Shown: piece after piece, positions 1-31,126 of the stretch | How positions within the stretch are numbered: position 1 is the first letter of the stretch | How the letters are laid out: each line of letters begins with the position of its first letter | Source: a virus | Strand: one strand, 5' to 3' | Virus record (IMG/VR): IMGVR_UViG_3300028410_000042 | Location: 1-31,126 of that record | DNA length: 31,126 bases | Made by a program: the position numbers and the translations under genes | The notes under the pieces: model-generated | Told to the model about the DNA's origin: nothing | Database searches by the model: none | The model's input: the letters and a program-made list of their open reading frames with translations, nothing else

Positions 1-14
1 TCGCGATGGTAAAG
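1..14. repeat. Terminal 14-bp identity with the window end (circular join)
   Basis: Bases 1-14 (TCGCGATGGTAAAG) are identical to 31113-31126. Joining the ends with one copy removed makes a single leftward reading frame with an ATG at 38-36 and a purine-rich ribosome site before it, continuing into the repeat protein at 31126. Keeping both copies changes the frame and loses that ATG. This supports a circular map of about 31112 bp. A very short true terminal redundancy is the alternative. Confidence 0.8.
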
Positions 15-38
15 TGCGTGTTTTGTTCGTTTTAGCAT
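1..38 (-). CDS. N-terminal codons of the cysteine-repeat protein (join-spanning)
   Basis: This is the 5' end of the gene that continues at 31126 on the other side of the circular join. The ATG is at 38-36 and the frame reads MLKRTKHA, then LYHREGTVKVPAPHSK from 31126 downward, then the repeats. An AGAGAAAG ribosome-binding sequence (about 49-56, minus strand) precedes the ATG and is separated from it by a run of eight C. The start is inferred from the frame, spacing and join; the inner ATG at 31078 is the alternative. Confidence 0.65.
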   Translation of the reverse strand, partial: MLKRTKHALYHR

Positions 39-47
39 TGGGGGGGG

Positions 48-125
48 TCTTTCTCTTTGTTAATGGGCCTAATCCTCTGCCCAGTCAGAAATATTCGGCT
101 TTTGCTTTCGTTTCTTCATAGGGAT
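48..125. repeat. 78-bp direct repeat, copy 1
   Basis: This block is identical over all 78 bases to 30578-30655. On the circular map the two copies lie 582 bp apart in the same orientation and bracket the repeat-protein gene. Read leftward, the block encodes a 17-residue tail (PMKKRKQKPNISDWAED), a stop, and the purine-rich ribosome site used by the next gene. Recombination between the copies would delete the gene cleanly. Confidence 0.95.
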
Positions 126-134
126 GTTTTCCAT
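69..134 (-). pseudogene. 21-codon remnant sharing the C-terminus of the repeat protein
   Basis: The frame starts at ATG 134-132 and reads MENIP followed by MKKRKQKPNISDWAED and a stop. From IPMKK onward it equals the C-terminus of the repeat protein because both lie in the 78-bp duplication. No good ribosome site stands close to the ATG. It may be the scar of a second repeat gene that lost its repeats, or a translated short peptide. An overlapping frame from ATG 139 (MNGKHPYEETKAKAEYF) is also open, so coding is uncertain. Confidence 0.4.
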
Positions 135-28997: not shown

Positions 28998-29214
28998 AGC
29001 ATTGGTTTTCTTTCTCTTTGTTAAGGGCGGGGCTGCTCTGCATCCCGCAGAATATCGACCGTGAACAGTGCGTGAAAATGTGAACAAGTTGTAATAAAAT
29101 CAAGAGCATGGTTTCGGTTATCAGGTGCCGGGGCCGAACATGCAGAGCGCCGTCTATGGCCTGAATATCCAGCCCGTGTGCCTTGATTTCGGTTAAGAGT
29201 ATGCCTGCCTCCAT
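28990..29214 (-). CDS. TubC-N-like domain protein, possibly frameshifted, 74 aa
   Basis: The start MEAGILLTEIKAHGLDIQAI then DGALHVRPRHLITETM matches the small 'LLxEIxxxGLxLxxxDGxLxVRP' fold of TubC N-terminal docking domains, found in phage and plasmid accessory genes. The normal closing helix (hydrophobic and charged, after LIT) is replaced by LLILLQLVHIFTHCSR. Another frame continues DFITTCSHFHALFTVDILRD, so a single-base shift is possible. The ATG overlaps the transposase-like stop (TGATG). Confidence 0.55.
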   Translation of the reverse strand: MEAGILLTEIKAHGLDIQAIDGALHVRPRHLITETMLLILLQLVHIFTHCSRSIFCGMQSSPALNKEKENQCYV

Positions 29215-29738
29215 CAAAATACCTCCGTATCCGTAACACCGTTGTAATCAAGGTTTTCTGCGGGTTTCAGGCTATTTTTATCCGTAACAATCTGTTCTGT
29301 GTTACGGCTAGGAATCTTGCCGCTTATGTAAGTTTCGTCCATTTCCACAATCCCTGCCAGCAGCTTGCCATCGTCAATCATTGCGGCCCTGATACGGTGC
29401 ATCATGCTCCATACGGTAGGGCGGCGCATTTCAAGGTTACGAGCTGCTTGCATGGCAGACAGCCCCTTCTTGGCCGAAAACATGAGAGCTATAAGCAAGA
29501 ACCATCTTTGCAGATCAACATGGCTGTTGTGGAAGATCGTCCCCACGGTCCCGGAAAACGACTTGCGGCACAAGCTACATTGCCAACGCGAACGTTGCTC
29601 TTTTTCCGCTTTGCGGGACACCTTTTCGCTTTTGCAATACGGGCAACAAGGTGAATCAGCCCAGCGCATTTGTTCAAGGTGATTAAGGCAGGATTCCTTT
29701 GTCGGGAAACGGCGATAAATACTTACAATACTGGTCAT
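29214..29738 (-). CDS. Truncated IS1595-like transposase, 174 aa
   Basis: The N-terminal zinc ribbon CPYC (32-35) and CSLC (54-57), the GTIFHNSHVDLQRWFLLI helix, KKGLSAMQAARNLEMRRPTV, and the first acidic motif GIVEMDETYISGK (Asp134) match IS1595-family (ISXO2-like) transposases. These are usually near 300 aa and need further acidic residues for catalysis; here the protein ends with an unrelated 30-residue tail (IPSRNTEQIVTDKNSL...). No inverted repeats of an element were found. GAGGAG precedes the ATG, which overlaps the PAPS-reductase-like stop. It may be a broken gene or a domesticated DNA-binding protein. Confidence 0.8.
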   Translation of the reverse strand: MTSIVSIYRRFPTKESCLNHLEQMRWADSPCCPYCKSEKVSRKAEKEQRSRWQCSLCRKSFSGTVGTIFHNSHVDLQRWFLLIALMFSAKKGLSAMQAARNLEMRRPTVWSMMHRIRAAMIDDGKLLAGIVEMDETYISGKIPSRNTEQIVTDKNSLKPAENLDYNGVTDTEVF

Positions 29739-30493
29739 TATACACTCTCCTCACAAAAAATTCCGCACTCAAAACTCATGTTTTTCATGGGCCTTCCCTT
29801 TGTTTTCGGGTCTAATTCATCAAGAAAAAGCCGTTCACCCTTAACGCGGACAAGCCTTGCGCCTATATCCCGCGATTGTTTTGCGCGCTCATCAAAAACG
29901 GCGGGGTGCATTTTACGGACATGGTTCCAATATGTAGGAGAAGTAGCCTTAACACATCCAATGCAGTTTGCATTTGGATACCCTAATCTGTATATTTCGG
30001 GCAATTCAATGCCAGCGTCTTTAACTATTTGGAAACACTGCGCTTTTGTAATACCCTCGTCAATCAACACAGGGATTAAGTTGCTTCTTTCGCCGAGAAT
30101 GAAATTATCGCTTCGCTTTTTTTCTTCAAAAGTAAAGCCTAATACGTGCCAATCAGCATGGTTACTTAGCTCCCATTGCTTTCGCGCCATTTTCTTTAAT
30201 TCAATAGTGCATGGCGCACCTTGCGGCCCCGACATGAAGCGCCGCTTTTCCCAAACATCTACGCAAGAACCGGCTGGGTATTTATCGTTAATGGCAAATT
30301 CCACAGGAACGCCAAGCCACGCCTCCACATCACGCAAGAAACGCATATTGTCGGAGTGCTCTTCTTTGATGGGGTTATTTACTACCCGAATTTTTGCAAT
30401 TTTACCGTATTTTTCAATGGTTTTCTTCGCCGCTACTGCGCTGGCAGCGCCGCAAGAAAACCATACGGCTATTGTTTCGCCTTCTTTAACCAT
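29738..30493 (-). CDS. PAPS reductase-like PP-loop ATPase domain protein, 251 aa
   Basis: The N-terminal VWFSCGAASAVAA (about residues 10-22) is a PP-loop (SxGxxS type) with an unusual Cys, as in phage phosphoadenosine phosphosulfate reductase-like proteins. A core with PVEFAINDKYPAGSCVDVW, and HVLGFTFEEKKRSDNF, and the closing GYPNANCIGCVKAT (Cys177, Cys180) complete the family picture. Such proteins adenylate substrates; in phages they are proposed to take part in sulfur-based or nucleic-acid modification, but the substrate is unknown. The stop overlaps the transposase-like start (TAATG), implying coupled expression. Confidence 0.8.
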   Translation of the reverse strand: MVKEGETIAVWFSCGAASAVAAKKTIEKYGKIAKIRVVNNPIKEEHSDNMRFLRDVEAWLGVPVEFAINDKYPAGSCVDVWEKRRFMSGPQGAPCTIELKKMARKQWELSNHADWHVLGFTFEEKKRSDNFILGERSNLIPVLIDEGITKAQCFQIVKDAGIELPEIYRLGYPNANCIGCVKATSPTYWNHVRKMHPAVFDERAKQSRDIGARLVRVKGERLFLDELDPKTKGRPMKNMSFECGIFCEESV

Positions 30494-30577: not shown

Positions 30578-30655
30578 TCTTTCTCTTTGTTAATGGGCCT
30601 AATCCTCTGCCCAGTCAGAAATATTCGGCTTTTGCTTTCGTTTCTTCATAGGGAT
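30578..30655. repeat. 78-bp direct repeat, copy 2
   Basis: Identical to 48-125. It contains the C-terminal 17 codons and stop of the repeat protein, plus a purine-rich ribosome-type block that here is followed by no nearby ATG. It marks the far side of the repeat-gene cassette. Confidence 0.95.
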
Positions 30656-31126
30656 TTCTTTGTCCAGATTACCGCTCAGCCCGGAGCAATCACCGATCAG
30701 CCCGGTGCAATTACCGCTCAGCCCGGAGCAATCACCGCTCAGCTCGGAGCAATCACCTCTCAGCCCGGAGCAATTACCGATCAGCTCGGTGCAATTACCG
30801 ATCAGCCCGGAGCAATCACCGATCAGCTCGGTGCAATTACCGATCAGCCCGGAGCAATTACCGATCAGCTCGGTGCAATTACCTCTCAGCCCGGTGCAAT
30901 CACCGCTCAGCCCGGTGCAATTACCGATCAGCCCGGTGCAATTACCGCTCAGCCCGGAGCAATCACCGCTCAGCCCGGTGCAATCACCGCTCAGCCCGGT
31001 GCAATCACCTCTCAGCCCGGTGCAATTACCGCTCAGCCCGGAGCAGTCACCCCACAGCCCGGTGCAATCACCGGTCATCTTAGAGTGGGGCGCAGGGACT
31101 TTTACCGTGCCCTCGCGATGGTAAAG
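30599..31126 (-). CDS. Cysteine-rich heptapeptide-repeat protein (5' end continues at 38-1)
   Basis: Reading leftward the protein has about 20 copies of a seven-residue unit G-[DN]-C-[ST]-[GE]-L-[SIRW] (19 with Cys, the last degenerate), framed by an N-terminal MLKRTK...VPAPHSK part that begins at 38 across the join and a basic tail PMKKRKQKPNISDWAED. Strict spacing with a Cys every seventh residue suggests a regular solenoid with a ladder of cysteines. Total length is about 183 aa. Related seven-residue proteins with Val in place of Cys occur in phage and metagenome data as unknowns, as far as I recall. The opposite strand is also open (SPEQSPIS...) but lacks a ribosome site. Confidence 0.75.
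   Translation of the reverse strand, partial: LYHREGTVKVPAPHSKMTGDCTGLWGDCSGLSGNCTGLRGDCTGLSGDCTGLSGDCSGLSGNCTGLIGNCTGLSGDCTGLRGNCTELIGNCSGLIGNCTELIGDCSGLIGNCTELIGNCSGLRGDCSELSGDCSGLSGNCTGLIGDCSGLSGNLDKEIPMKKRKQKPNISDWAED
30664..31075. repeat. 21-bp minisatellite within the repeat gene
   Basis: About 19-20 tandem copies of a 21-bp unit of the type CAATCACCGCTCAGCCCGG (plus two bases). Copies differ at a few fixed sites: GGAG/GGTG, ATCACC/ATTACC, and GCTCAGC/GATCAGC, which change the amino acids G/E, D/N and S/I/R. Such arrays gain and lose units easily; because 21 is a multiple of three, the frame stays open. Confidence 0.9.

What the first reader, a model, noticed from the sequence alone, without database searches (positions are those of the whole stretch)
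30599..31126. Cysteine-ladder heptapeptide protein built on a 21-bp minisatellite
The gene encodes about 20 tandem units G-[DN]-C-[ST]-[GE]-L-x, with a cysteine at every seventh position in 19 of them. The variable positions are few and recur in patterns, and copy number can change without breaking the frame. A solenoid with a column of cysteines could bind metal, form disulfides or act as a repeat-tunable binding surface. I know seven-residue repeats of this general kind only as uncharacterised proteins.
Basis: partly seen in the sequence, partly recalled or inferred. Interest (0 to 1): 0.8.

Follow-up and report, generated by a model that had tools for sequence, protein, structure and literature searches.

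The report
Shuffled-repeat phage surface protein family
A phage gene made of about twenty near-identical seven-residue repeats belongs to a large undescribed family of environmental phages in which the repeat core is kept constant while the outer residues and the repeat number change quickly, as if to keep changing what the protein binds.

Summary
On the minus strand it encodes 183 aa across the contig join: a 26-aa N-cap, 19 units G-[DN]-C-[ST]-[GE]-L-x, and a 24-aa C-cap. About 120 distinct relatives were recovered from environmental viral contigs, but only one record among 50,697 catalogued phages matched. Relatives share the caps, have Shine-Dalgarno sites, and sit among early recombination and replication genes.

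The cysteine ladder is not the point. Sister arrays with up to 62% identical caps carry valine in the same column, so this is probably a buried core position. The notable feature is the evolution. Positions G1, C/V3 and L6 are held constant. Position 7 (more weakly 5) varies more than synonymous sites in the same array (57 arrays above, 8 below; p about 3e-10). Residues at positions 2, 4, 5 and 7 are reshuffled, and unit number differs between contigs with 98-100% identical flanks. This matches the concerted-evolution-plus-diversification pattern of fungal HNWD immune receptors.

Best reading: a cytoplasmic early phage binding scaffold, probably a beta-solenoid, diversified by recombination, target unknown. 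The fold is weakly supported (AlphaFold2 pLDDT 59-67); copy-number differences rest on metagenome assemblies.

The parts
30599..31126 (-). Main part of the 183-aa heptad-repeat gene (aa 13-183 and stop); the 5' end continues at 38-1 across the join (31113-31126 repeats 1-14)
   Evidence: Open frame; join and 183-aa ORF
1..38 (-). 5' end of the same gene (ATG at 36-38), first part of the N-cap MLKRTKHALYHR...
   Evidence: N-cap homology
31073..31112 (-). Rest of the 26-aa N-cap (...GTVKVPAPHSKMT)
30674..31072 (-). 19 heptad units G-[DN]-C-[ST]-[GE]-L-[SIRW] on a 21-bp minisatellite; variable codons 2, 4, 5, 7; one synonymous variant (GAC for GAT) among 19 units
   Evidence: TRF; codon analysis
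30602..30673 (-). C-cap GNLDKEIPMKKRKQKPNISDWAED, subtype IP..R.P.N[IL].DW.E shared with L005, L008, L113
30578..30655 (.). 78-bp exact direct repeat, copy covering the gene's 3' end
48..125 (.). 78-bp exact direct repeat, copy upstream of the gene; holds the SD-like AAAGAGAAAG of the heptad gene
69..134 (-). 21-codon ORF MENIPMKKRKQKPNISDWAED, C-cap remnant, best read as the leftover of a tandem paralogue
   Evidence: intact tandem paralogues in L008, L046, L098

Best explanation
The gene belongs to a widespread, undescribed family of phage early proteins: short N-cap, 4-34 heptad units, short C-cap. Each unit contributes a turn (G1-D/N2) and a short strand with buried C/V3 and L6, giving an elongated repeat scaffold, most likely a beta-solenoid, whose exposed positions 2, 4, 5 and 7 form the surface. 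Unequal recombination between 21-bp units, probably helped by the phage's own annealing recombinase (Erf, Sak or RecE-type genes are among the neighbours), homogenises synonymous and core sites, changes unit number in frame, and makes new unit combinations. Selection keeps the core fixed and favours different residues at the surface. The likely role is binding a variable partner in the host cytoplasm early in infection (a host or defence protein). Shown: family, caps, signs of translation, core conservation, C/V exchange, excess diversity at position 7 (and 5), reshuffling, unit-number differences in assemblies. Inferred: beta-solenoid fold, surface placement of positions 2, 4, 5 and 7, recombinase involvement, binding role and target.
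For: Family and caps: (C- and V-type caps up to 62% identical, nominal E 4e-19; the C/V exchange is seen with both C-cap subtypes). Translation: SD-like motifs before 54 of 97 starts against 19 expected; third-position entropy highest. Core versus surface: position 7 pN>pS in 57 of 67 arrays, position 5 in 45 of 68, position 3 in 3 of 61, position 6 in 7 of 62; position 7 nt 1-2 against four-fold sites 57 to 8, p 3e-10, same in C and V types and with one array per contig. Reshuffling: L020 has all 8 combinations of D/N, G/D, R/S in 33 units with no synonymous difference; 65 of 71 arrays show all four combinations for at least one site pair, 8 of 10 site pairs in the window. Length change: L055 9 units against L075 5, L098 16 against L099 24, L037 29 against L043 35, L009 18 against L012 13, with near-identical flanks. 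Context: SSB, ERF and NinB in the window; Erf, RecE-like, Gam, Sak, HNH and helicase near relatives. Fold: AF2 models with strand at positions 3-7 and turn at 1-2; extra residues of 8-residue units fall between S/T4 and L6.
Against: AlphaFold2 confidence is low (pLDDT 67 and 59), AF2 is known to over-predict beta-solenoids for repeats (PMC11795689), and no usable fold match was found. No periodicity or parity of unit number points to a coil size. pN>pS could partly reflect constraint on synonymous sites or drift of a few seed variants. Short-read assemblies may misjudge copy number. No partner, expression or phenotype data exist. Enrichment of recombination genes near the family over ordinary phage early regions was not tested.
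Confidence: 0.5

Rival explanations
1. Neutral minisatellite gene: the array changes by slippage and unequal recombination, the core is conserved only so that the chain folds, and surface positions drift without a diversified target; the protein is a passive spacer or scaffold.
For: Slippage of a 21-bp repeat explains homogenised synonymous sites and length change; unit number varies freely from 4 to 34; shuffling of a few seed variants explains many combinations.
Against: Drift predicts pN at free positions equal to, not above, synonymous diversity; position 7 exceeds four-fold sites in 57 arrays and falls below in 8, and stays higher on average in arrays with much synonymous diversity. The same small alphabets (D/N, S/T, R/S/W/I) recur with different codons in different phages.
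Confidence: 0.25
2. DNA-mimic or topoisomerase-binding solenoid in the manner of pentapeptide-repeat MfpA/Qnr: an acidic rod that occupies a host DNA-binding enzyme.
For: Array net charge -11 in the window and mostly negative in relatives; early cytoplasmic context; pentapeptide-repeat genes near relatives in L021, L022, L070, L080; pentapeptide solenoids are described as DNA-like rods (PMC10886550).
Against: Most arrays are only mildly acidic, several are neutral or positive (L008_4417 +2, L057_3 +4), and Arg is the commonest residue at position 7. A DNA mimic does not explain surface diversification. No significant fold match to pentapeptide proteins.
Confidence: 0.12
3. Cysteine-ladder metal, thiol or disulfide protein.
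For: Cys at position 3 in 90% of units of C-type arrays; a PAPS-reductase-like gene is the next gene on the same strand in the window.
Against: Homologues with the same caps have Val at that position throughout; mixed arrays exist. No secretion signal was recognised; cytoplasmic early-gene context.
Confidence: 0.06
4. Coiled-coil or fibrous virion protein: heptads with hydrophobic residues 3 and 4 apart, like tail needles.
For: Profile hits to tail needle, Lpp, reovirus sigma-1 and fibritin heptads.
Against: Gly is near-invariant at position 1 and commonest at position 5; one-residue insertions, some with Pro, break the heptad register; the gene lies in the early region, in the window on the strand opposite the structural genes.
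Confidence: 0.07

Closest known systems
HNWD NOD-like receptors (het-d/het-e WD40 repeats) of Podospora anserina, PMC12222747
   Same: Very similar repeats kept alike by concerted evolution, length polymorphism by unequal crossing-over, and a few codon positions per repeat under diversifying selection on the binding surface
   Different: WD40 beta-propeller repeats in a fungal receptor; here 7-residue units in small phage early proteins with no known partner
Pentapeptide-repeat proteins (Qnr, MfpA)
   Same: Short repeats, thought to have two core positions per unit; beta-solenoid; cytoplasmic; pentapeptide genes lie in the same neighbourhoods in four loci
   Different: Five- against seven-residue period, no Pfam match to pentapeptide families, invariant Gly here, different caps
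Grass ice-recrystallisation-inhibition beta-roll (PF21300 LbR_Ice_bind, PDB 3ult)
   Same: Seven-residue sub-repeats (own knowledge); profile hits in 4 of 44 members and a weak hit to 3ult
   Different: Below the curated cut-off for the window protein; different inward pattern, plant extracellular protein
Pneumocystis major surface glycoprotein domain (PF02349)
   Same: Passes the Pfam score cut-off because of the C-x-x-L heptad spacing
   Different: Read here as a low-complexity spacing match; V-type relatives lack the cysteines

Membership tests
Pentapeptide-repeat proteins | Five-residue A(D/N)LXX period | tested here: not met
   Period is 7; 1607 of 1640 units are 7 residues; no Pfam pentapeptide hit
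Pentapeptide-repeat proteins | Right-handed quadrilateral beta-helix | tested here: inconclusive
   AF2 pLDDT 67 and 59; no significant Foldseek match
MSG (PF02349) | Score above Pfam cut-off | tested here: met
   45.2 bits against 22
MSG (PF02349) | Conserved cysteines | tested here: not met
   Sister arrays with homologous caps have Val in the Cys column
LbR_Ice_bind beta-roll | Score above Pfam cut-off | tested here: not met
   14 bits against 30 for the window protein
Repeat genes under concerted evolution plus diversifying selection (HNWD type, mode of evolution) | Synonymous and core sites homogenised within a gene | tested here: met
   Window pS 0.033 against pN 0.146; four arrays with pS 0
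Repeat genes under concerted evolution plus diversifying selection (HNWD type, mode of evolution) | A few codon positions per repeat vary more than synonymous sites | tested here: met
   Positions 7 and 5
Repeat genes under concerted evolution plus diversifying selection (HNWD type, mode of evolution) | Variable positions lie on a binding surface | not testable with these tools
   No reliable structure and no known partner
Coiled-coil tail needle | Uninterrupted helical heptads | tested here: not met
   Invariant Gly, register-breaking 8-residue units; AF2 predicts strands

The most novel reading that the evidence does not exclude
A phage-borne combinatorial recognition protein: a solenoid whose binding face is written in a small per-unit alphabet and rewritten by phage-encoded recombination between 21-bp units, used against variable host or defence factors; in effect a viral counterpart of diversifying immune-receptor repeats that needs no reverse transcriptase.
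Probability: 0.3. Interest if true: 0.85.

Novelty: new variant of a known kind. Interest (0 to 1): 0.62.

Why it matters
If right, environmental phages carry a common, unannotated class of self-diversifying binding proteins, overlooked because only one catalogued phage record shows one, profile libraries misread them as coiled coils or Cys-rich surface proteins, and the repeats break short-read assemblies. It would add a recombination-driven route of phage protein diversification beside diversity-generating retroelements and phase variation, and it points to an unknown host target under an arms race.

Tried and rejected
Metal or disulfide ladder: rejected because Val replaces Cys in homologues with the same caps. 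Membership of MSG, RiPP TigB, Lpp, tail needle and minor head protein families: spacing or low-complexity matches, mutually inconsistent. Coil size from lag correlations and unit parity: no signal. Fold searches of both AF2 models: no usable match. Bacterial homologues: three hits in one Polyangiaceae MAG have no heptad-repeat ORF and the family profile does not match that genome; plasmid hits lie in a stretch without a listed gene, antisense to an annotated gene, or in an unannotated record, and two Salmonella plasmid hits in autotransporter-type genes were not followed. Domain search with the caps: nothing above cut-off. Literature searches with repeat strings and descriptions found no description of the family.

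Full report
What is there. The array is the only tandem repeat Tandem Repeats Finder reports in the window: 19.4 copies of 21 bp at 30671-31077. The minus-strand frame 30599-31126 is open, and the contig ends share 14 bp. Joined, they give a 183-aa protein starting at coordinate 38: MLKRTKHALYHREGTVKVPAPHSKMT, then 19 units G-[DN]-C-[ST]-[GE]-L-x, then GNLDKEIPMKKRKQKPNISDWAED. The join is supported by homology, since relatives have the same kind of N-cap. The phage is a P22-like podovirus by portal and capsid. Its early genes (SSB, exonuclease, ERF, NinB) lie on the same strand as the heptad gene, opposite the structural genes.

Relatives. Scans of IMG/VR with one sequence, an alignment and a Val-type pattern gave 13, 73 and 34 loci, partly overlapping, and 123 distinct heptad proteins or fragments including the window. 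Only one record among 50,697 catalogued phages matched, MW202691.1, a genome from a spring sample with no host named. The low-complexity filter of that search may hide others. Complete members share an N-cap (roughly MKK.LT....LYH[YF].DG..I.G.N..M) and mostly one of two C-caps (roughly G[DN]LD.CEIT.EER..GVDI..LI, or GNLD.IP...RP.N[IL].DW.E, the window's type). Outside the repeats the caps match no Pfam family above cut-off. Tandem paralogues are common (three in L008, L046 and L098), so the 78-bp exact direct repeat that flanks the window's gene, with a 21-codon C-cap remnant upstream, is best read as the trace of a lost tandem copy.

Translation. Shine-Dalgarno-like motifs precede 54 of 97 chosen starts against 19 expected from shuffles. 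Between arrays the third codon position varies most.

Cysteine is most likely a core residue, not a special chemistry. In the set found with Cys-bearing patterns, position 3 is Cys in 90% of 1180 units. A separate pattern found arrays with Val there throughout. Caps of C-type L006 and V-type L109 are 62% identical; in the other C-cap subtype, C-type L008 and V-type L113 are 45% identical. By composition 70 arrays are C-type, 37 hydrophobic (mainly V) and 9 mixed, among them L057, L065 and L014. The exchange therefore seems to have happened at least twice and to spread through whole arrays.

Concerted evolution with a diversified surface. In 68 non-redundant arrays, position 3 and 6 replacements are rarer than synonymous changes in nearly all (pN>pS in only 3 of 61 and 7 of 62 with a difference), while position 7 replacements exceed them in 57 of 67 and position 5 in 45 of 68. 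Position 2 is neutral on this measure and position 4 slightly constrained. A stricter comparison, position 7 nucleotides 1-2 against four-fold sites, gives 57 above and 8 below (p about 3e-10), and holds for C and V types separately and with one array per contig. In the window pS is 0.033 and pN 0.146. L020 has 33 units without a synonymous difference yet all eight combinations of D/N, G/D and R/S. All four combinations of at least one pair of variable sites occur in 65 of 71 arrays. Recombination inside units explains this best. The same small alphabets recur with different codons in different phages.

Copy number. Contigs with 98-100% identical flanks differ in units: L055 9 and L075 5, L098 16 and L099 24 (an eight-unit duplication with a hybrid unit GYVSAIS at the junction), L037 29 and L043 35, L009 18 and L012 13. 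Unit totals run from 4 to 34 without preferred parity. By my count 27 of the 73 loci lie within about 300 bp of a contig end, as expected if the repeats break assemblies. Copy-number differences therefore need long reads.

Fold. AF2 gives strand-and-turn repeats with the turn at G1-D2 and the strand at positions 3-7, with modest confidence (pLDDT 67 for the window, 59 for diverged V-type L098), and AF2 over-predicts beta-solenoids for repeats (PMC11795689). No usable fold match was found. Sequence evidence against a coiled coil is better: Gly is invariant at position 1 in parsed units, and 8-residue units carry the extra residue between S/T4 and L6, sometimes with Pro.

How it most likely works. 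An early cytoplasmic scaffold whose outer positions are rewritten by recombination between units and kept diverse by selection. The closest described mode of evolution that I found is the WD40 repeats of Podospora HNWD receptors: concerted evolution, length change and a few codon positions under diversifying selection at the binding surface (PMC12222747). That is a likeness of mechanism, not membership. The partner is unknown; a variable host or defence protein is the natural guess. Neighbouring annealing recombinases and exonucleases could drive the shuffling, but enrichment over ordinary early regions was not tested.

Noticed in passing
window 48-125 and 30578-30655: 78-bp exact direct repeat flanking the heptad gene; the upstream copy leaves a 21-codon C-cap remnant (69-134, minus strand).
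   Followed up: partly
window 40-47: Run of eight G (eight C on the coding strand) between the SD-like AAAGAGAAAG and the start codon; a length change would alter SD-ATG spacing. Only one of the relatives checked had a homopolymer there (L115, a run of A).
   Followed up: partly
window 29738-30493: PAPS-reductase-like gene directly downstream of the heptad gene on the same strand (PHROG 424).
   Followed up: partly
window 29214-29738: ORF with an IS1595 transposase zinc-ribbon domain, apparently short for a full transposase.
   Followed up: no
L039 4854-5711 and L048 4968-5534: Heptad proteins in which the usual C-cap is replaced by a shared domain of about 65 aa (LW[VI]W[RK]YPI[VI]KI..VGC.RF.KKP.YEEV) without a Pfam match above cut-off.
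   Followed up: partly
L021, L022, L070, L080: Pentapeptide-repeat proteins encoded on the same contig pieces as heptad genes, adjacent in L021 and L070.
   Followed up: partly
L014/L059: A 239-kb phage contig encodes a diverged heptad protein with mixed V, I, C and L core and interruptions of the array.
   Followed up: no
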